From the NCBI GenBank assembly GCA_015178975.1, contig WHVD01000162.1:116700-180699 (forward strand): a stretch of DNA of 64,000 nt, written 5' to 3'. The DNA comes from Hysterangium stoloniferum. Its lineage: Eukaryota > Basidiomycota > Agaricomycetes > Hysterangiales > Hysterangiaceae. Positions 36,341 to 46,746 of the stretch are shown here, one piece after another (position 1 is the stretch's first letter; each line of letters begins with the position of its first letter). The notes beneath the pieces were generated by a model. The model was not told the DNA's origin and did not search any database. It saw only the letters and a program-made list of their open reading frames with translations. The position numbers were made by a program, and so were the translations under genes.

Positions 36341-37322
36341 GCTGGGTCAAAAACGGATAATCATATTGAAAGCAGATAGATATTCAGACCAGCAGGCCTG
36401 TCGATGGGTCAAAAGTTTTGTAGTAGAAAAGTATTCCAGGTTTTTGTGATCTGTTACAACATCAATTGGAGTTCCTGAGGCCTCCAAATAGTGTCGCCAC
36501 ACTTTGAAAGCTGAAAAAATTGCCAGGAGTTCCTTATCATGAACGTTGTAATTGAGCTCTGCTCCGGTAAAAGTCCGGGACAGAAAAGCCATGGGTGGAC
36601 TTCTCCGTCAGAGTCCTGGATAGACAGAATGGCTCCAAGTGCATAGTCTGAGGCATCCGTTTCAACAATGAGCAGGAGGTCCGGTTTCCAATGCGACAGA
36701 ATAGGAGCTGAAGAAAAAGAATTTTTAAAACATTGAAAGCTTTTTGACACTTATCGTTAAAATTCCATGGAGTATCCTTACATGTAAGACAGGTAAGGGG
36801 AACCATGATGTTGGAATATCCACAGATAAACTGTCTGTAAAAGTTGGCAAAGCTGAGGAAGGATTGTATATCTTTAACTTTTCAGGGTTCAGGCCAATCT
36901 TTGATGACTTGTACTTTAGTTTCATCTATGTGGAGTCCATCAGGTCCCATTATGAAACCCAGGTATTCCACAGAGTCTGTGTCAAAAGTACATTTTTTAC
37001 CATTCACGAATAAACCATGTTGTCTGAGTCTCCAGAGAACTTCACAGACCTGTTTGTTGTGTGCCGCAGGATCCTCGGAGTAGATAAGAATGTTGTCCAA
37101 GTAAACAATAACACATACATCGAGCATGTTGGAGAAAATGTCGTTGATAAAATGCTGAAAAACAGATGGAGCATTGGTGAGTCCAAAGGGCATCACCAAC
37201 CACTCAAAGGCCCCATAGCAGGTTCTAAAAGTGGTTTTCCATTCATCACCTGCGGTGATCCAGACCAAATGATAGGTGTGTTTAAGATCTATTTTTGTAT
37301 AAATCCGGGCATTCCACAGAGC
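36341..37322 (-). pseudogene. gypsy-2 RNase H and C-terminal half of RT
   Basis: RNase H fragments include [35 protein letters not shown] and [16 protein letters not shown]. The RT half (36882-37268) includes MPFGLTNAPSVFQ and an active site reading YLDNIL, so the second catalytic aspartate is asparagine (a G-to-A change). Element X was inserted next to this point; the RT N-terminal half resumes at 43768. Confidence 0.85.
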
Positions 37323-37536
37323 ATTGGAGGGTGTTTATAATTACTATAATCTCAAATATTTACTAATAAAAGTCTTATTTTTACAAAACTCCATCTTTAA
37401 ATAGTGATATCTATTCTGAAACAATTATATCATCAAAAAACAACCATCAGAAATAGTTCTCCATATTGCATCTTATACAACCCATAGTTATTTAACAAAT
37501 TCTATTGTATATAATTTCCTTCCTTTTACAGATGTC

Positions 37537-37556
37537 TACTAATACTTTTATTAGTA
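37537..37556. other. Hairpin in the X terminal repeat
   Basis: TACTAATA-CTTT-TATTAGTA, a perfect 8-bp stem with a 4-base loop. Present in all three repeat copies. Confidence 0.7.
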
Positions 37557-37882
37557 CTTTGTCTTTTAAAAGCTGTAATGTAGTTATTTCCTAGTAAAAT
37601 ATATGAGATGTCATTGGAAATTTTTCATCCTATGGCCTTCTTTATTAAGTGAAATTACCTATATATTCTGGGTATGTTGAATCAAGTAGAAATCTGTTCA
37701 GATTGACAGATCCATTCCAAAGTAATACATATGTATTTAGAGGTGCCAATAATATACATATGCATGGAATGGACTATCTAAAGGTATCTACTTTTTAAAA
37801 GTATTAGTGTTTCAAACTACTAATTTTTTTTATTGTCTACTCGTGTCCAGAAAGATTCTTTAGTTTGTAATGTATGAGAGAG

Positions 37883-37907
37883 TTTAAAACTTTTTGAAAG
37901 TTTTAAA
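37883..37907. other. Second hairpin in the X terminal repeat
   Basis: TTTAAAACTTT-TTG-AAAGTTTTAAA, a perfect 11-bp stem with a 3-base loop, about 95 bp from the inner edge of the left repeat. Present in all three copies. It could be a binding or processing site. Confidence 0.7.
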
Positions 37908-38013
37908 AACCAAATTATGTTTGAATCACATCCCAGATGTTTAAATGACCTTTAGAGTATATTAGAATTTGGTATACTTAATAGTTTTCAGATATCCTCC
38001 TACTGGAAGTTTA

Positions 38014-39369
38014 TCAAATTTCTTCTCCTTTCTTTTTCCAGTATTCATCTATACACTCTGTGGTATCAAAACTCCTCACTCCTTGCCAAGTTACATCTTC
38101 ATATCCCTTCCATTTTACAAGGTACTCTCTGAACTTTCCTTTTCCTCTATGGTTTATTATTTCCTCAATTTCATATGCCTCATCTGTCTCATCCATATCT
38201 TCATCATCACCTAACTCCATACTCAGAAAACTTCTTTGAAGCTTGAGCATCTCCTGAGCATTACTTCTACTATCTGTCAATGATGGGAGATTCTCATATG
38301 TTTCAATATTTTCATCTTTCCAGTAGTCAAACTCTGAAGATAACCATGAAGAGTGATGAGGTTGAGGTTGAATACCACCTAAAATTACAAACTTCTTCAC
38401 ATTTAATAAGAGACATCCAAGCTTTAACTGGGTTGTGAATACCTCATCATCAGAAACTCTAACACCTCCTTCATTACTGAGCTTCTTAAATGTGGTAGCC
38501 AGCTCTCCAAAAGTAGCTTCAATCTTAGACCTGAAACTACCAAACATTTTGTTAAAGGTACTCTCTTCCTTTGACAATTCTATACCTTTTGATTTACGTA
38601 TAGGTATACAGAAGTTAATCATATCTAATTCTGTATTACTTGTTATCTTTGTAAGGTGTAAGGGATATCCCCCATCTAAAGCAATACAATCTAGTTTGTC
38701 TATATACTTCTCCAATTTCATCTTTACAAACATGACTCCATCTGAATTGTCTTTACAGGGTGCTGACTTTGATGTGAATAGAACCATGCCATTTATATCA
38801 ATACAAACTTGTGTCCGAAGTCCAGATTTCTTGAGTTTATATGAATACATATCTTCACTCTTCTCACCAATAACACTTGCTCTAGTATCATGACCATCTA
38901 TCATTAATGTTACATGTCTAAACAATGGAGGATTTTTCTGTGCAGAATGAATGCGTATATCAATAGTTGAGAACATAGAAATGAGCATATTTGAGATCCT
39001 TTTATCAAGATCATTACCTTGTCTTTCATAGAATTTTCTAAAAATATCATAATAACTACTTTTAGGTATAAAGACTGACATTTGATTTAAGGAATAACCT
39101 TGCAGTAGTTGATATAGTATTAAAAGTCCTTTCTCCATATTTCTATAGGGTCCAGGATAATCTTGGGTGGCAAAGACCACAACAAGGAAGAAAAAGACTG
39201 GAATAATACCAAGTCTCTGAAGAACAAGATCCTTAATGTGACTAATTTTATCAATAGGTTTGATATCAGACCTGTGATACTTGGATGGCTTGATCTGAGG
39301 CCATTCCTTATAAAGGAACTTCCATTGTTGGTCCATTAACTTATTAAACTCCTCATTTAGAGGAGACAT
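38014..39369 (-). CDS. DDE transposase with C-terminal chromodomain
   Basis: 451 aa, no stops. The catalytic core fits the DDE_Tnp_4 (Harbinger/IS5-like) pattern: D158 in LMIDGHDTRAS, D232 in IALDGGYP, and E284 in FGSFRSKIEATFGEL, where the S-F-R-x-K-I-E-x-T-F-G block is the family signature around the glutamate. Residues about 399-447 form a chromodomain (YEIEEIINHR, YLVKWKGYEDVTWQG, CIDEYW), a module that reads methylated histone tails and is common in retroelement integrases but unusual on a cut-and-paste transposase. An acidic linker (GDDEDMDETDEAYE) joins the two. The N-terminus (residues 1-110) has no clear zinc finger or helix-turn-helix that I can name. It diverges from the nuclease-like gene over a 98-bp gap (39370-39467), a likely shared promoter. 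Expected role: excision and insertion of X with target choice guided by chromatin. Confidence 0.85.
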   Translation of the reverse strand: MSPLNEEFNKLMDQQWKFLYKEWPQIKPSKYHRSDIKPIDKISHIKDLVLQRLGIIPVFFFLVVVFATQDYPGPYRNMEKGLLILYQLLQGYSLNQMSVFIPKSSYYDIFRKFYERQGNDLDKRISNMLISMFSTIDIRIHSAQKNPPLFRHVTLMIDGHDTRASVIGEKSEDMYSYKLKKSGLRTQVCIDINGMVLFTSKSAPCKDNSDGVMFVKMKLEKYIDKLDCIALDGGYPLHLTKITSNTELDMINFCIPIRKSKGIELSKEESTFNKMFGSFRSKIEATFGELATTFKKLSNEGGVRVSDDEVFTTQLKLGCLLLNVKKFVILGGIQPQPHHSSWLSSEFDYWKDENIETYENLPSLTDSRSNAQEMLKLQRSFLSMELGDDEDMDETDEAYEIEEIINHRGKGKFREYLVKWKGYEDVTWQGVRSFDTTECIDEYWKKKGEEI

Positions 39370-39467
39370 TGATATGATTAGTATACAATGCTATACTGAT
39401 TTGGAAATATTCAATTTAATAGAGAATATTGAAAATTCCTGTATATTAGTTATATGTATGAATCCTA
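39370..39467. promoter_or_regulatory. Divergent promoter region of element X
   Basis: 98 bp between the transposase and nuclease-like start codons, very AT-rich, with TATA-like words in both directions (TATACAATG, TATATTAG). No other room exists for promoters of these two genes. Confidence 0.5.
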
Positions 39468-40091
39468 ATGGAGCAGATCTTAAAGATATCTGTGAGTGCT
39501 GCTGAAAGTACTTCTATAAACCCTGACAACTTAGAATGCTTTTGGTATGCACCTTGGAATATTATCTTAGGAATATTATTTGAAGCACAATTTGTAATTA
39601 CTCCACAATTAACCATAAAATATGATACAACAAATAGAGATGAAATAGATATATCTAAGATTATGATACCAGATTTTGTTGTAACTCATTATAAAAAAGA
39701 TTTGAAAGACAATATACGTGAATGTAAGTACCTGATAATAGAAAATAAGAGAACTGATAAAAATATATCAGTGGATGAATTGGAAGTTGCCTGTGACCAA
39801 CTCAAGAAATATATAAGAATAGTTTTTTTAGATAAGAGTTATAAAGGAATCTTTGGAGTAGCTTCCTCCGGTAGAACTTGGAAATGGTATAAATTTATAA
39901 GAAAAAATACTTCTAAGAGTCACAAGCCTAAAAACTCTTGGGGTAATAAAAGCTATATCCCTAGTGATGAGGAAGAGGAAGAAGTATTTGAAATAGCATA
40001 TAAATCTAAAATACTTGATATTATGGATAAGAAGTCATTTGATATTCTTGTGAAAGAGATGAAAGAATATTATTCCAAAATGAACTTTTAA
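39468..40091 (+). CDS. PD-(D/E)XK nuclease-like protein
   Basis: 207 aa. The order I-P-D69-F-V-V, then L-I-I-E92-N-K94, then Q111-L-K-K-Y is the core pattern of PD-(D/E)XK nucleases: metal-binding D, the E-x-K pair on the next strand, and the Q-x3-Y on the following helix. A C-terminal acidic run (SDEEEEEV, about 166-173) and a basic patch before it could bind DNA or a partner. No other domain is seen. In family terms it resembles restriction-type or Holliday-junction-type nucleases. A parallel is ISL2EU elements, where a DDE transposase is paired with a YqaJ exonuclease. It is followed after 26 bp by the 112-aa frame, so the two may be co-transcribed. Confidence 0.6.
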   Translation: MEQILKISVSAAESTSINPDNLECFWYAPWNIILGILFEAQFVITPQLTIKYDTTNRDEIDISKIMIPDFVVTHYKKDLKDNIRECKYLIIENKRTDKNISVDELEVACDQLKKYIRIVFLDKSYKGIFGVASSGRTWKWYKFIRKNTSKSHKPKNSWGNKSYIPSDEEEEEVFEIAYKSKILDIMDKKSFDILVKEMKEYYSKMNF

Positions 40092-40117
40092 AGATATATC
40101 TAGAGCGATTAGGTACT

Positions 40118-40456
40118 ATGAACTTCCCTAAGGTACTTGGATATAAAGTTAGAAAAGAAAAGATATTAGAACAGTGTAGAAGACATGGTATAAGTACTGA
40201 GGATGGATACACAGGATCAATCAAAAATTTGATAAGCAGAAGTGGTTGTCCCGTACTACATTTCAGACTTGAAAAACAAGAGGATAGACCTAAAGGTGAA
40301 ACTGGTATTTTCATTCTATGTCTTTATGAAACTTTATATCATAAAGAAGAAATAAATATTGAGGAGATTTTATCAAGATTTCCACCTATATTTGAAGAGA
40401 TAAAAGGAGATCTTGGAATAACTGGGGATCCTCAAATTTATTTAATAGAACCCTAA
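40118..40456 (+). CDS. Hypothetical 112-aa protein of element X
   Basis: Not recognised. It starts MNFPKVLGYKVRKEKIL, is mixed charged, soluble and without membrane segments, and ends ITGDPQIYLIEP. The C-terminal block DLGITGDPQIYLIEP is reminiscent of short adaptor or DNA-binding proteins but I cannot assign it. Its stop codon (40454-40456) is followed immediately by the first base of the central inverted repeat, so the two were shaped together. Confidence 0.6.
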   Translation: MNFPKVLGYKVRKEKILEQCRRHGISTEDGYTGSIKNLISRSGCPVLHFRLEKQEDRPKGETGIFILCLYETLYHKEEINIEEILSRFPPIFEEIKGDLGITGDPQIYLIEP

Positions 40457-40745
40457 CTATTCCCCATAAATCCTATTTTTAAAAGAAATTTCAACTAACC
40501 TATTTCCCATAAATCCTCCTTTTTAAAAGTAATCCAAAAATCCTTTAAAATCCCATAATAAAGATTAAAGATTAATAAAGGGTAGTAGCGGTAACATATG
40601 CTTAGGGCTCCAGCCCCCGGTTAATCTTAATAGTTCTTTTACCTCAATAATTTACCCAAATTTCAGTTGTCTTCTTACCATAATTATTCAGTGGAGGTGT
40701 AGCTATTACCATCCAACCTTTTCTATTTTCAGGATTTACCAATAT
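40457..40745. repeat. Central inverted repeat of element X, left arm
   Basis: 289 bp, complementary to 40863-41151 with a single visible mismatch (TTTTTAAAA against TTTTGAAAA). It includes the inner palindrome GGGCTCCAGCCC at about 40605-40616 and a conserved GGTAGTAGCGGTAACATATG. The two convergent gene groups end at its outer borders. Confidence 0.95.
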
Positions 40746-40862
40746 CTCTTTCTTAGATCTTCAACAACAATAATATCTATTTGTAGACTATATTTCTTTT
40801 AGTAAGCTAGGAACTGTATTTGAATTATTAATAGAATTTCTGAAAAGGGGAAGATAGTTGAA
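40746..40862. other. 117-bp spacer of the central inverted repeat
   Basis: AT-rich single-copy sequence between the arms. It would form the loop of a very large cruciform or the unique centre of the palindrome. No frame or motif recognised. Confidence 0.6.
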
Positions 40863-41151
40863 ATATTGGTAAATCCTGAAAATAGAAAAGGTTGGATGGT
40901 AATAGCTACACCTCCACTGAATAATTATGGTAAGAAGACAACTGAAATTTGGGTAAATTATTGAGGTAAAAGAACTATTAAGATTAACCGGGGGCTGGAG
41001 CCCTAAGCATATGTTACCGCTACTACCCTTTATTAATCTTTAATCTTTATTATGGGATTTTAAAGGATTTTTGGATTACTTTTAAAAAGGAGGATTTATG
41101 GGAAATAGGTTAGTTGAAATTTCTTTTCAAAATAGGATTTATGGGGAATAG
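40863..41151. repeat. Central inverted repeat of element X, right arm
   Basis: Mirror of 40457-40745. It ends 23 bp downstream of the stop codon of the 103-aa gene. Near-identity of the arms implies recent duplication, gene conversion or replication through a hairpin. Confidence 0.95.
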
Positions 41152-41173
41152 GTTTAAATATTGTAGTAATATT

Positions 41174-41485
41174 TTAGGGATCTTCAGTTATTCTTACATA
41201 TTCAACTAATTTCTCCACTACCTCATCATCTATATTTACCTTGGAAAATAATTTATGTTCTAGATCTTTTCCAATATTAAGAAGGAAGAATATAACATCA
41301 CTACCACAAGATTCCTCATTAAGTTTTGAAGAACCTTTCTTAACAAGTTTGATATTAAGTTCTACAACTGCTACAAGGATCTTCTTCATTTTAGGATCTA
41401 GTGACAATGATAAGACTACTATCTCACATATATTATTTATATGTTGTCCATTGAGGTTAGTGATATTGGTCTCAAGGAGATCCAT
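41174..41485 (-). CDS. Hypothetical 103-aa protein of element X
   Basis: Not recognised. Mostly helical by pattern (ICEIVVLSLSLDPKMKKILVAVVELNIKLVKKG), with an acidic C-terminus (DDEVVEKLVEYVRITEDP). No signal peptide or convincing membrane span. It lies 31 bp downstream of the 511-aa gene on the same strand, so it may be expressed from the same transcript. Confidence 0.6.
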   Translation of the reverse strand: MDLLETNITNLNGQHINNICEIVVLSLSLDPKMKKILVAVVELNIKLVKKGSSKLNEESCGSDVIFFLLNIGKDLEHKLFSKVNIDDEVVEKLVEYVRITEDP

Positions 41486-41516
41486 TCTGGTACAGAAGTA
41501 GTAGACTGAACTTTTT

Positions 41517-43052
41517 TCATTTTATATGTATATCTTTCTGTCCATGTCTTTTTACTATTCTACCAGTTCTTATATAAGTCTTATCTTTCATATCCTTTAC
41601 AGCATTTTGTAAGGATTCTCCACACCTTACCTTTAGTACTTCTGAATTTTTATCTAAGACTTCTATAACAGTGCAATTCTTTCCCCTATATAAAAGTTGA
41701 CCTTTTGATATAACTTGATATTTTGAATTTTCTTTAAGAATTGAATATCCTACCTTGTATCTAGATATTCTCAAATCACTTATATCTTCTAAATTCTTAC
41801 TAACTCTATAAATTGGGACAAGGGGAGGTGATTTTTTAGTTATCTGAGTGTCAACCCAACCAAGCTTTACTCCTTTGTAATCCACAAGCCCTATATCACT
41901 TGGTGAAGATGAACTCTCAATCCTAGGATAGAGCCCTCCTTTAGGACCAGGTATAAGTGTAATACCCTTTTGTGACCTTTTGTATTCCTCTACCATGGTT
42001 ATCCCATCATCAACCCTAACAAGTTTGGTAGTATTTCCATTAAAACTATAGTTAGAAACTAATTGAATTATATCTTCCTTATTTACATTCTTTTGGAAGC
42101 CTCCTTGGATCTTTCCTGTTAAAGAATTCCACCAATGGCAATATGCAAAAAACTTTCTATCTTTTAAGTAAACCATTATTGTTGATTTGGAATAGATGCT
42201 ATCTACAAGTGCTCTCCACTGCTCTTCAAAGGAACTTCTATAAAATCTACATCCATTAAAGTTATTTCTAATACTAATAAAGTTATCTATATACCATGAT
42301 TTTGAAAACACTTTGTTACCATAAAACTTAACTTCAATCCTTGTCATTCCCACATCCTTTAATCTTTCTAGTGATTGTGACATTGACTCAGTAGGATCAA
42401 CATATAAATTGTGGATTCTAGATCCTAGAGTAGTCATCACATCACAGCTTTCTAGCATTTGTACAAATTTGTTATATACTTTGATCTTACATGAGTGATC
42501 TTCATTGTAAAAGGATATACAATTATCTCCAACCTTTTTTCTATCATCTATAATATCATCTTTTCTTATTCCAATATTTAATATATGCTTAAGAACATTT
42601 TTTCTAGTAGTAACATAGGAGATATCTTGGGAGATATCTATATCATGTAATATAATTTCATTACAAATGGTTTCTCTTAGGAATTTTATTATGTTTTTGA
42701 TAGGTACCTCAGATAATGAAATTTTATAAGAAAAGTAAGGAGTATTTGTAGGTGCAATATCATTATTTTTGAGAGTACCTGAGTGCAATAACTTGATCTT
42801 AAAGGAAAGTGAGAAATATACTTTACATTTTCCATATATATTATTTCTAAAGTCTCCTCCAATAGACCATAGAATTATATTATCACAGAAAATATATGAA
42901 GTATTAGAGGACTCAAAAGATAGTCTAATGGCTTCTAAAGGATTGTAGTATTTAGTATCCAGAACATCAGGTATACTGAACTCTTTTATAATATCAATAC
43001 ATTCTTTGAGTGCCTCATTTGCCATGGGAGACTGTAACAGTCGTACACTCAT
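41517..43052 (-). CDS. Putative Rep-like replication initiator, 511 aa
   Basis: Intact 511-aa frame and the largest protein of the element. Three spaced motifs resemble replication-initiation proteins of the Rep_trans / Phage-CRI (ORF2/G2P-like HUH) group: an alternating acidic strand HDIDISQDI (136-144), a K-I-K-V-Y-N-K-F block with Y192 (189-196) that matches the R/K-x-Y-x-K motif, and MTRIEVKFYG (236-245) matching the R-x-E-x-x motif. The classical HUH histidine pair is not evident, as is true for Rep_trans. The C-terminal 250 residues (YFSYKISL earlier, then HWWNSLTGKIQGGFQKN, ITLIPGPKGGLYP) are unassigned. The start is 37 bp from the right terminal repeat, so its promoter must lie in the repeat. 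Function is inference from motif spacing; it could equally be an unknown DNA-binding or nuclease protein. Confidence 0.45.
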   Translation of the reverse strand: MSVRLLQSPMANEALKECIDIIKEFSIPDVLDTKYYNPLEAIRLSFESSNTSYIFCDNIILWSIGGDFRNNIYGKCKVYFSLSFKIKLLHSGTLKNNDIAPTNTPYFSYKISLSEVPIKNIIKFLRETICNEIILHDIDISQDISYVTTRKNVLKHILNIGIRKDDIIDDRKKVGDNCISFYNEDHSCKIKVYNKFVQMLESCDVMTTLGSRIHNLYVDPTESMSQSLERLKDVGMTRIEVKFYGNKVFSKSWYIDNFISIRNNFNGCRFYRSSFEEQWRALVDSIYSKSTIMVYLKDRKFFAYCHWWNSLTGKIQGGFQKNVNKEDIIQLVSNYSFNGNTTKLVRVDDGITMVEEYKRSQKGITLIPGPKGGLYPRIESSSSPSDIGLVDYKGVKLGWVDTQITKKSPPLVPIYRVSKNLEDISDLRISRYKVGYSILKENSKYQVISKGQLLYRGKNCTVIEVLDKNSEVLKVRCGESLQNAVKDMKDKTYIRTGRIVKRHGQKDIHIK

Positions 43053-43089
43053 TACATTTTTTCAATTTGAAAATCAAGACCTTCATATA

Positions 43090-43764
43090 GGAGGGTGTTT
43101 ATAATTACTATAATCTCAAATATTTACTAATAAAAGTCTTATTTTTACAAAACTCCATCTTTAAATAGTGATATCTATTCTGAAACAATTATATCATCAA
43201 AAAACAACCATCAGAAATAGTTCTCCATATTGCATCTTATACAACCCATAGTTATTTAACAAATTCTATTGTATATAATTTCCTTCCTTTTACAGATGTC
43301 TACTAATACTTTTATTAGTACTTTGTCTTTTAAAAGCTGTAATGTAGTTATTTCCTAGTAAAATATATGAGATGTCATTGGAAATTTTTCATCCTATGGC
43401 CTTCTTTATTAAGTAAAATTACCTATATATTCTGGGTATGTTGAATCAAGTAGAAATCTGTTCAGATTGACAGATCCATTCCAAAGTAATACATATGTAT
43501 TTAGAGGTGCCAATAATATACATATGCATGGAATGGACTATCTAAAGGTATCTACTTTTTAAAAGTATTAGTGTTTCAAACTACTAATTTTTTTTATTGT
43601 CTACTCGTGTCCAGAAAGATTCTTTAGTTTGTAATGTATGAGAGAGTTTAAAACTTTTTGAAAGTTTTAAAAACCAAATTATGTTTGAATCACATCCCAG
43701 ATGTTTAAATGACCTTTAGAGTATATTAGAATTTGGTATACTTAATAGTTTTCAGATATCCTCC
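43090..43764. repeat. Element X right terminal direct repeat
   Basis: 675 bp, same orientation as the left copy and almost identical. The inner flank (CTTCATATA) is unrelated to the inner flank of the left copy, so the two repeats are not independent insertions. It probably supplies the promoter for the 511-aa gene. Confidence 0.95.
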
Positions 43765-43767
43765 ATT

Positions 43768-44699
43768 GAGCAGATCAGATATAAGTGGGAGTGGATACTT
43801 ATCCCTTTCGGTGACAGCATTGAGTCCTCTAAAATCAACACATAGTCTAAGGGATCCATCCTTTTTTCTAACAAACAGAACAGGTGCTCCAAAAGGAGAC
43901 TTTGAGGGTTGGATAAAACCTATGGACAAATGTTCATCCAGGAAATCGCGGATTGCAGAAGGTTCCGTGGATGAGAGCGGGTAAATATGTCCTAGGGGTG
44001 GCTGGATGCTGTCTCTGAGATCAATTTTTAAGTCGTAATCTCTGTGGGGTGGAAGCCGGTCAGCTTTCTGCTTGCAAAAAACATCCGCAAAGTCATGATA
44101 TTTCTCCGGGACACCTTCTAGGTCAGCGGCTTGCTCAGATGCAGATACCGGGGTTGAAAAACATCCAGTTGCTTCATCAATTTTTAAGTTGATAGTGAAC
44201 ACCTGGGACCCATCCATTTTTGAAGCCCTAATCAAAGCTGCAGCATTAGAAATAGACGGAGGTGCCGTGGGTTCTGGGGAAGCCATAGGTGCCGTAGGGA
44301 TCACAGGAGTCCTTGAGACTGCAGGTGCCAGGAAGGCCATGGGCACCATGGAGGGTGCAGTTTCCTTGGCTGCCGCGGGTGTCTGGAATGTTATACTGTT
44401 AGCTATCCAGTCAATCAACGGATTGTAGCGGGTAAGCCAGTTGTGTCCTAGGACCACCGAGCAACTTGAGTCTAACTGGGTCACATAGAAAGTGACCAAT
44501 TGAGATGTTCCACACGGGAAACAGATGGATAAATCACACGCTTGGGTGACAACCGAATTACTTGTGCCATCAAAGAGGCAGAGGCCAACGGGATTTATCG
44601 GATAAGTTGACAACAAATTTTTCTGTGTGAATTTTGTATCTAAAAAACAATGAGTTGAGCCAGAATCTATAAGCTGAAAAAATGAATTTTGGAATTATA
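43768..44699 (-). pseudogene. gypsy-2 RT N-terminal half, protease and linker
   Basis: Continues the RT across element X. The 296-aa frame (43726-44616) has the protease block [20 protein letters not shown], a short Ala/Pro linker with no array, [50 protein letters not shown]. Its last residues run into the X repeat. Upstream the aspartic motif region joins at the A2 insertion. Confidence 0.88.
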
Positions 44700-45519: not shown

Positions 45520-46068
45520 TTATATTAGACATAAGTTGAACGAAAAATGAATCAGAATGCGAAAGAGTGGATGCGTTGAGACAGGGTAAACTCTTGAATG
45601 TGTGGAGAGGCAACGCAACACCCAACCCACATGGAGTCCACAGGGTTGCTTACTCTTTTTTCATGTCGAAAGCCAGTTTGTCCCTCAACGGGGTTTCCAT
45701 GGAGGTTTTGGCTGTTCGACCCTTTGCAGAGTTTTCTTTTGCCAGCGGACATTCCAGGACTCGATGACCAGGTTTCCCACACAATAGACAGAGGTTATTG
45801 TCCATACAACATTGTCTTTCCTGTGGGGACAATTTGCCATTGGGTCTGAGTTTGCCTGTGAGGTCAGGTTTTCCGGCTTGCTTGCCAGACTGTTGACCCT
45901 TGTTGTTGTTGTTGTTGTTAGAAGACTTTTTATCGTTCTTCTTGTCAGATTGCGTGGAGTTCTGGTTGCTGGTTGACGAGTTGCTGTTGTTGGTTTTATT
46001 GGCCGTGGACCTGTTTACTTTGTCCGGGGAGGTCTCACGGGCAACTTCCACGTGACATTCCCAATAAT
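45520..46068 (-). pseudogene. gypsy-2 gag C-terminus with zinc knuckle
   Basis: The minus strand (45650-46051) reads an Asn/Ser/Lys-rich linker, then a CCHC knuckle NNLCLLCGKPGHRVLECPL, with C-X2-C-X4-H-X4-C spacing, and an acidic/basic end. It is separated from the capsid part by the solo X repeat. Confidence 0.88.
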
Positions 46069-46743
46069 GGAGGGTGTTTATAATTACTATAATCTCAAAT
46101 ATTTACTAATAAAAGTCTTATTTTTACAAAACTCCATCTTTAAATAGTGATATCTATTCTGAAACAATTATATCATCAAAAAACAACCATCAGAAATAGT
46201 TCTCCATATTACATCTTATACAACCCATAGTTATTTAACAAATTCTATTGTATATAATTTCCTTCCTTTTACAGATGTCTACTAATACTTTTATTAGTAC
46301 TTTGTCTTTTAAAAGCTGTAATGTAGTTATTTCCTAGTAAAATATATGAGATGTCATTGGAAATTTTTCATCCTATGGCCTTCTTTATTAAGTGAAATTA
46401 CCTATATATTCTGGGTATGTTGAATCAAGTAGAAATCTGTTCAGATTGACAGATCCATTCCAAAGTAATACATATGTATTTAGAGGTGCCAATGATATAC
46501 ATATGCATGGAATGGACTATCTAAAGGTATCTACTTTTTAAAAGTATTAATGTTTCAAACTACTAATTTTTTTTATTGTCTACTCGTGTCCAGAAAGATT
46601 CTTTAGTTTGTAATGTATGAGAGAGTTTAAAACTTTTTGAAAGTTTTAAAAACCAAATTATGTTTGAATCACATCCCAGATGTTTAAATGACCTTTAGAG
46701 TATATTAGAATTTGGTATACTTAATAGTTTTCAGATATCCTCC
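46069..46743. repeat. Solo 675-bp repeat of element X
   Basis: Starts GGAGGGTG and ends ATATCCTCC, like the two terminal repeats of X, flanked by its own duplication AAT (46066-46068 and 46744-46746) inside the gypsy-2 gag. It differs from them by only a few bases. It is either a solo repeat left by recombination between the ends of a full X or a repeat that moved on its own. Confidence 0.93.
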
Positions 46744-46746
46744 AAT

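What the first reader, a model, noticed from the sequence alone, without database searches (positions are those of the whole stretch)
37326..43764. Element X: a compact, apparently undescribed mobile element with LTR-like direct repeats but a DDE transposase and Rep-like gene
Seen: 675-bp direct terminal repeats, ATT target duplication inside an otherwise continuous gypsy RT gene, five unbroken intronless frames with virus-like spacing, and a central 289-bp-arm palindrome. Known: cut-and-paste DNA transposons have inverted, not long direct, terminal repeats, while elements with long direct repeats are retrotransposons or circular replicons. Inferred: X may be a hybrid replicon, in which a DDE transposase integrates a DNA molecule that is amplified by a Rep-like protein as a circle carrying one 675-bp copy. 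I know of no family with this set of parts.
Basis: partly seen in the sequence, partly recalled or inferred. Interest (0 to 1): 0.95.

Follow-up and report, generated by a model that had tools for sequence, protein, structure and literature searches.

The report
Fungal transposon with LTR-like ends
In an apparently fungal genome we find a family of jumping DNA that looks like an LTR retrotransposon from outside but carries a DNA-cutting transposase, a gene resembling the replication starter of small phages, and a large mirror-image sequence whose centre flips, so it may copy itself as a DNA circle.

Summary
X (37326-43764) has two 675-bp direct repeats with one mismatch, an ATT duplication, five open frames and a palindrome with 292-nt arms. 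It is a family: all 24 solo repeats among the 30 best repeat hits have exact 3-bp duplications, and so do 7 of 8 longer copies read at both ends. Leaving out X plus one ATT makes the gypsy RT frame continuous.

The transposase is DDE_Tnp_4 (PHIS/Harbinger type) plus a chromodomain. The 511-aa protein belongs to a fungal/metagenomic family (78 hits) with Rep_trans/phage-pII-like motifs. One of 68 members matches the IKe/M13 pII family (E 1.6e-6); a weak alignment puts the pII catalytic tyrosine opposite a tyrosine invariant in 68 of 68. Profile-profile tests were not significant. In 12 copies palindrome arms are 95-100% alike within a copy, about 86% on average between copies; the loop occurs in both orientations.

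'No known family' is too strong: animal KolobokP (2022) has the same direct-repeat/solo architecture with another transposase. A second family here (Y) has such repeats without a Rep-like gene. X is a new variant of that kind. Circle replication plus DDE integration is plausible, unproven.

The parts
37323..37325 (.). target duplication ATT, left copy
37326..38000 (+). long terminal direct repeat 1 (675 bp), tips GGAGG...CCTCC
37706..37785 (+). strongest predicted hairpin of the repeat (folded for the window's repeat only); sequence nearly unchanged in 12 aligned repeats apart from one 11-base deletion and one 4-base insertion; possible origin or binding site (inferred)
38014..39369 (-). 451-aa transposase: DDE_Tnp_4 (4.9e-10) + chromodomain (2.1e-6); triad assigned as D158-D232-E284
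39468..40091 (+). 207-aa protein, PD-(D/E)XK-nuclease-like motif IPDF...ENK (kept in homologue P0079, missing from P0080); TnsA-N below cut-off (0.038; P0079 0.0043)
40118..40456 (+). 112-aa protein, unknown; 27 matches in the genome
40457..40748 (.). palindrome arm A
40749..40859 (.). asymmetric palindrome loop; inverted in two other copies
40860..41151 (.). palindrome arm B
41174..41485 (-). 103-aa protein, unknown; 28 matches in the genome
41517..43052 (-). 511-aa Rep_trans/phage-pII-like protein; putative catalytic Y193; dN/dS 0.16-0.38 in 18 of 21 copy pairs
43090..43764 (+). long terminal direct repeat 2 (675 bp)
43765..43767 (.). target duplication ATT, right copy
46069..46743 (+). solo direct repeat (99.6%) with AAT duplication (46066-46068, 46744-46746) in the gag frame of the same gypsy element
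36882..37268 (-). host gypsy RT fragment, part of the frame interrupted by X
43726..44616 (-). host gypsy fragment on the other side of X (the listed ORF runs into the repeat)

Best explanation
X is a recently active DNA transposon of a composite-like 'paired direct repeat' kind. SHOWN: the unit 675-bp repeat / internal part / 675-bp repeat is found inserted with a 3-bp duplication; the 675-bp unit also occurs alone with 3-bp duplications; X has a DDE_Tnp_4 (PHIS-type) transposase with a chromodomain and no recognised RT. INFERRED, likely: the transposase acts on the GGAGG/CCTCC ends of the repeat, so whole elements and perhaps single repeats can move. INFERRED, less certain: the 511-aa Rep_trans/pII-like protein nicks and replicates a one-repeat circle (5764 bp), and linear units with two identical repeats cut from its concatemers are integrated by the transposase. 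The long palindrome goes through inversion and arm homogenisation by recombination or hairpin processing, perhaps involving the PD-(D/E)XK-like protein.
For: 3-bp duplications: 24 of 24 solos among the 30 best hits; 7 of 8 longer copies read at both ends. The two repeats of a copy are 98.5-100% identical in 7 copies, while the other six copies are 88-99.7% identical to the window's repeat. DDE + chromo domains. Rep-like: D57 65, D139 66, D143 68, Y193 68, K195 68, R238 68, E240 67 of 68, the order of published Rep_trans motifs N', I, III, IV (PMC5714925). One of 68 members matches phrog_702 at 1.6e-6, the family of IKe pII (1.3e-125). In a weak alignment the invariant Tyr faces the YLK Tyr, residue 197 of an Ff-phage pII; Tyr-197 of M13 pII is linked to the nicked DNA (PMC5405960). 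dN/dS 0.16-0.38 in 18 of 21 pairs. Palindrome arms alike within copies, loop in both orientations.
Against: No circle, concatemer or replication intermediate could be looked at (no reads). Profile comparisons with RstA (8 sequences) and pII (10 sequences) were not significant; shuffles reached the same scores. 67 of 68 members do not match phrog_702, and Pfam Rep_trans has no match in the genome although its control rang. Motif I lacks the R of RxD, motif III has Q for E, and motif II was not recognised. Three of 21 copy pairs have dN/dS of 0.54-1.11 (few changes). Family Y has the direct repeats without a Rep match or palindrome, so neither is needed for that layout. One longer copy (C464) has unequal end triplets (CTT/TAT). 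Some copies differ little from each other in the palindrome (up to 98.7%).
Confidence: 0.55

Rival explanations
1. KolobokP-like cut-and-paste only: X moves by excision and reinsertion. Solo repeats, identical repeat pairs and identical palindrome arms all come from ordinary recombination or gene conversion between repeats inside chromosomal copies, perhaps stimulated by the nuclease-like protein. The Rep-like protein has an accessory role and no circle is replicated.
For: KolobokP shows the same solo/pair architecture with a transposase and a His-Me nuclease only (PMC9587614). Family Y here has 99.4% identical repeats and 3-bp duplications without a Rep match or palindrome. One recombination process would explain solos, repeat identity, arm identity and loop inversion together.
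Against: The Rep-like gene is under purifying selection in most comparisons and belongs to a family found in other fungi and metagenomes, possibly on the same contigs as related transposases (6 shared contig lengths, 1.95 expected), which suggests a core role.
Confidence: 0.35
2. X is an integrated virus or plasmid: a small DNA replicon that uses the transposase only to integrate, as Spiroplasma phage SpV1 may do in bacteria.
For: Rep-like gene, compact intronless frames, low GC (30% against 43-45% in the flanks). The SpV1 record annotates an IS30-type transposase.
Against: No capsid or other viral hallmark was recognised among the five proteins; no relative of the 511-aa protein in IMG/VR contigs or plasmids, nor of homologue P0077 in phages, at the sensitivity of those scans; solo repeats and family Y behave as transposons.
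Confidence: 0.07
3. X is an LTR retrotransposon derivative or an assembly artefact.
For: Repeats at both ends, near-identical within copies, and solo repeats resemble LTRs.
Against: No RT recognised among the five proteins, the DDE domain is a transposase, seven longer copies and 24 solos carry matching 3-bp duplications, and a second family exists.
Confidence: 0.02

Closest known systems
KolobokP (Kojima & Bao 2022, PMC9587614; abstract, part 1 of 3 of Results, the section on its place in the superfamily, and found passages read)
   Same: DDE DNA transposon with long terminal direct repeats (about 450 or 660 bp there; 675 and 620 here) that have their own inverted tips of the RR..YY kind; abundant solo repeats with duplications (3-4 or 4-5 bp there, 3 here); internal transposase plus a nuclease gene.
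   Different: KolobokP was reported from seven animal phyla, has inverted tips of 11-18 bp, a Kolobok transposase with zinc fingers and a His-Me nuclease. X lies in an apparently fungal genome, has only GGAGG/CCTCC tips, a DDE_Tnp_4 transposase with a chromodomain and no such zinc finger, a PD-(D/E)XK-like protein, a Rep_trans-like protein, two more genes and a flipping palindrome.
PHIS superfamily (PIF/Harbinger-ISL2EU-Spy, IS5)
   Same: Transposase domain DDE_Tnp_4; 3-bp duplications as in canonical Harbinger (PMC12730594, passages).
   Different: Long direct repeats, no TWA-only target (TTA in 3 of 24 solos, TAA in none), no Myb/SANT protein recognised, chromodomain added.
Rep_trans / Phage_CRI (M13 pII) rolling-circle initiators
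   Same: Ordered acidic, YxK and xRxE motifs; one fungal homologue matches the pII family at 1.6e-6; the pII YLK tyrosine (197 in an Ff phage) faces the invariant Tyr in that weak alignment.
   Different: Eukaryotic, 511 aa against about 400, invariant Q in place of E in YxKxxE, no significant profile-profile match.
Spiroplasma phage SpV1 (record seen)
   Same: A small replicon whose record annotates an IS30-type DDE transposase; that it replicates by rolling circle is recalled.
   Different: A bacterial virus; no long terminal direct repeats known to me.

Membership tests
KolobokP | two long terminal direct repeats with own short inverted ends flanking an internal coding part | tested here: met
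   675-bp repeats, GGAGG/CCTCC tips; family Y 620 bp; the inverted tips are shorter than KolobokP's 11-18 bp
KolobokP | solo repeats flanked by duplications | tested here: met
   24 of 24 solos among the 30 best hits
KolobokP | Kolobok transposase with zinc finger between second D and E, and CCHC after the first D | tested here: not met
   among 57 aligned proteins C205 is the only Cys column conserved at 95% or more, and X has one Cys (254) between D232 and E284; Pfam hit is DDE_Tnp_4
KolobokP | His-Me finger nuclease | tested here: not met
   no such Pfam match in any of the five proteins
KolobokP | multimers (repeat-INT)n-repeat | not tested
PIF/Harbinger (PHIS) | DDE_Tnp_4 transposase | tested here: met
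   4.9e-10, above the gathering score; family Y 2.2e-7
PIF/Harbinger (PHIS) | 3-bp duplication | tested here: met
PIF/Harbinger (PHIS) | TWA target preference (recalled) | tested here: not met
   TTA in 3 and TAA in 0 of 24 solos
PIF/Harbinger (PHIS) | second, Myb/SANT-like protein | tested here: not met
   no Pfam match in the other four proteins of X
PIF/Harbinger (PHIS) | position in a transposase tree | not tested
   no reference transposase set at hand
Rep_trans/pII rolling-circle initiators | catalytic Tyr in YxKxxE | tested here: inconclusive
   YxK in 68 of 68, but the last position is Q in 68 of 68; catalysis not testable
Rep_trans/pII rolling-circle initiators | acidic motifs N' and I (RxD), and W/LxRxE | tested here: inconclusive
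   D57 65, D139 66, R238 68, E240 67 of 68; the R of RxD is absent and the first position of the last motif varies
Rep_trans/pII rolling-circle initiators | significant profile match | tested here: inconclusive
   1 of 68 members matches phrog_702 (1.6e-6); PF02486 no match in the genome; home-made profiles at shuffle level
Rep_trans/pII rolling-circle initiators | fold | not testable with these tools
   structure prediction switched off
LTR retrotransposon | reverse transcriptase | tested here: not met
   no RT among Pfam matches of the five proteins

The most novel reading that the evidence does not exclude
X represents a class of eukaryotic mobile DNA that replicates as a rolling circle with its own Rep_trans-type initiator and then integrates through a DDE transposase, so that LTR-like identical ends arise without reverse transcription; its long inverted repeat is a flip/flop element tied to that replication. 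Relatives would span Mortierellales/Mucorales and fungal metagenomes.
Probability: 0.35. Interest if true: 0.92.

Novelty: new variant of a known kind. Interest (0 to 1): 0.74.

Why it matters
Near-identical long terminal direct repeats plus solo repeats are usually read as the mark of an LTR retrotransposon; X and Y show that DDE transposon families can produce the same picture, so automatic annotation may misfile them. KolobokP was described from animals with a Kolobok transposase; here a different transposase type has the same architecture, which points to independent origin and so to a mechanism worth finding. If the Rep-like protein replicates the element, copy-number gain of a DDE transposon by rolling-circle DNA replication becomes directly testable in a fungus.

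Tried and rejected
Led nowhere: relatives of the 511-aa protein in IMG/VR, prokaryote species genomes and plasmids; P0077 against phages; PDB sequences (one chance-level match, E 1.8; none); PF02486 and phrog_702 against the own genome (phrog_702 rang in no control either). An hhalign test against RstA-type Rep_trans was chosen from memory of motifs and was negative; searches had used the wrong strand of that gene by mistake. The pII family was then identified through phrog_702, and its profile tests were weak too. Rejected: LTR retrotransposon (no RT recognised), assembly artefact (many copies), Kolobok membership (no zinc fingers), PIF/Harbinger target preference. A search for the left part of the C367 copy found that homology to X begins at the start of palindrome arm B. 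Shared contig lengths as linkage evidence are only suggestive (62 of 5000 jittered controls reach 6). L099 and L101 (relatives of Y) showed one repeat each and no pair in the stretch fetched, so Y's layout rests on L098 and L100.
Full report
OBSERVATION. The two 675-bp repeats differ at one base, the ATT duplication is exact, and the five frames are open. The palindrome has 292-nt arms around 111 nt. The element has 30% GC in flanks of 43-45%. Leaving out X and one ATT makes the host gypsy RT frame continuous; leaving out the solo repeat at 46069-46743 and one AAT does the same for gag. A 240-base join of the flanks has 40 matches of 92-94% in the genome that cross the junction (40 scored of 1328 candidates).

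A FAMILY, NOT A SINGLE LOCUS. The genome (111 Mb, 554 contigs, unnamed; taken as fungal from the relatives of its elements) gave 41 matches for the repeat, 40 of them near full length and one of 25 bases, from 40 scored of 1099 first-look candidates; three of the 40 lie in this window. Of the 30 best hits, which were fetched, 24 are solo repeats and all 24 have an exact 3-bp duplication; the other six are repeats of longer copies. A script typed 25 repeats as solo; the 25th, from another fetch and without a duplication, is taken as the right repeat of the longer copy C152. Longer copies read at both ends: window ATT, C441 ATT, C113 AAT, C442 ATA, C1 ATA, C152 ATT and C537 TAA match, C464 (CTT/TAT) does not (7 of 8). 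C212 has a truncated left repeat; of C177 only the left side was read; further copies were not fetched. Solo triplets vary (TTA in 3 of 24, TAA in none). The 24 solos are on average 99.5% identical to each other, which means recent activity. They were picked by similarity to the window's repeat, so older solos are not represented.

IDENTICAL ENDS. Within a copy the two repeats are 100, 100, 99.85, 99.4, 99.1, 98.9 and 98.5% identical (C441, C152, window, C442, C113, C212 over 522 bases, C1), while the repeats of the other six copies are 88 to 99.7% identical to the window's. Both repeats of a copy therefore trace to one template or are homogenised, as in LTR retrotransposons but without a recognised RT. 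Between copies the differences of the repeat are blockwise, mostly in its first 330 bases (12 repeats aligned).

PROTEINS. The 451-aa protein has DDE_Tnp_4 (4.9e-10) and a chromodomain (2.1e-6). In 57 aligned proteins (X, Y and 55 of the 120 listed relatives) D158, D232 and E284, which I assign as the triad, are invariant, and there is no Kolobok-type zinc finger. 316 relatives were found; those among the 120 listed that carry an organism name are Mortierellales and Mucorales (orders recalled). The 207-aa protein has P-D...E-N-K; TnsA-N is below cut-off. It has two relatives, of which P0079 keeps the motif and the Hysterangium protein P0080 lacks that stretch as annotated. The 112- and 103-aa proteins have no Pfam match but recur in the genome (27 and 28 matches). 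The 511-aa protein has 60 matches in the genome and 78 relatives elsewhere, including Mortierella, Rhizomucor and Apophysomyces. Among seven copies without stops dN/dS is 0.16-0.38 in 18 of 21 pairs and 0.54-1.11 in the three pairs of one close trio.

IS IT A REP? In 68 aligned members (window plus 67 of the 78) D57 is kept in 65, D139 in 66, D143, Y193, K195, Q198 and R238 in 68, E240 in 67. This is the order of the Rep_trans motifs N', RxD, YxKxxE and W/LxRxE given in a review (PMC5714925, passages), which also says that M13/Cri initiators share them; the R of RxD and the E of YxKxxE are not kept. One member, P0077, matches phrog_702 at 1.6e-6 over residues 133-288; the other 67 do not. phrog_702 is the family of phage IKe pII (1.3e-125). 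A home-made pII profile ranks P0077 first of 79 over nearly the same residues, but only at E 0.13 against 0.2 for the best shuffle. In that alignment the pII YLK tyrosine faces the invariant Tyr of the fungal family; it is residue 197 in an Ff phage, and Tyr-197 of M13 pII is the residue linked to nicked DNA (PMC5405960, one passage). hhalign against RstA and pII was not significant. Rep-like is therefore probable but not proven.

PALINDROME. Of 15 loci examined, 12 (the window's copy included) have both arms, with 95.2-100% identity within a copy over the aligned stretches, which in some copies cover only about half an arm; means between copies are 85.5-87.3% and single values run from 63 to 98.7%. 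In a tree 7 of the 12 pair by copy and the other five fall in two close clusters. Among nine copies with the window's loop type, seven have the window's orientation and two the inverse relative to the Rep-like gene; among three copies with another loop type, two and one; the remaining four of 16 loci have neither. So loops flip and arms evolve largely in concert. Intra-element recombination explains this; hairpin processing of single-stranded replication intermediates would too. Two of 22 loci compared begin at the start of arm B (C367 at 40866, C146 at 40860), perhaps breakage at the palindrome.

A SECOND FAMILY. A 50% identical transposase at C356 lies in family Y: 620-bp direct repeats (99.4% over 621 matched bases), tips GGAGG/CCTCC, duplication TGG, two other frames (394 and 163 aa), no Rep match and no inverted repeat of 40 nt or more. 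Another Y copy at C141 has duplication TAA. Two further relatives (C2, C1) showed one repeat each. Direct repeats thus go with this transposase type; Rep and palindrome are features of X. Six contig lengths are shared between the Rep and transposase hit lists from other sources (1.95 expected by jitter, 62 of 5000 reach 6); five of these pairs also agree in source and contig number, so the pairing probably exists elsewhere. Those contigs could not be read.

COMPARISON. KolobokP (PMC9587614) is the precedent for direct repeats, solos and a nuclease; its authors discuss a one-repeat circle. One paper of the held library names KolobokP. Listings seen for long terminal direct repeats with transposase (6 papers), with Harbinger/fungal genomes/chromodomain (20 of 99 listed), rolling circle or replication protein with DDE transposase (4 each), PIF-Harbinger with chromodomain (5) and flip-flop palindromes (10 of 16 listed) showed no other element like X by title and abstract start. 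Repbase and subscription papers were not searched.

VERDICT. The nearest known kind is KolobokP-like transposons; X is a new variant with a different transposase, a putative replication initiator and a flipping palindrome.

Noticed in passing
L098:1150-6691 (G000 C356): Second family Y: 620-bp direct repeats, DDE-chromo transposase 50% identical to X's, no Rep match; 394-aa protein with tandem acidic repeats.
   Followed up: partly
G000 C441:4682-9659 (L026, L027, L036, L039): Inverted duplication of the Rep-repeat half of X with the same host flank on both sides, arms 100% identical over the stretches compared, near a contig end; either a fold-back duplication or an assembly effect.
   Followed up: no
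G000 copies C113, C441, C442, C464, C152, C177 against window, C212, C537: The 207-aa genes fall in two classes (63-66% against 87-100% to the window's) while transposases of these copies are 96-100% identical, so copies look like mosaics.
   Followed up: partly
L102:4412; L060:879: Two half copies begin at the start of palindrome arm B, as if broken at the hairpin.
   Followed up: partly
L088 (Spiroplasma phage R8A2B): A bacterial phage record that annotates an IS30-type transposase, a possible functional analogue of a replicon that integrates by DDE chemistry.
   Followed up: no
L022:2905-3527: A more diverged (88%) partial repeat next to a young solo repeat: older layers of the family exist.
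   Followed up: no
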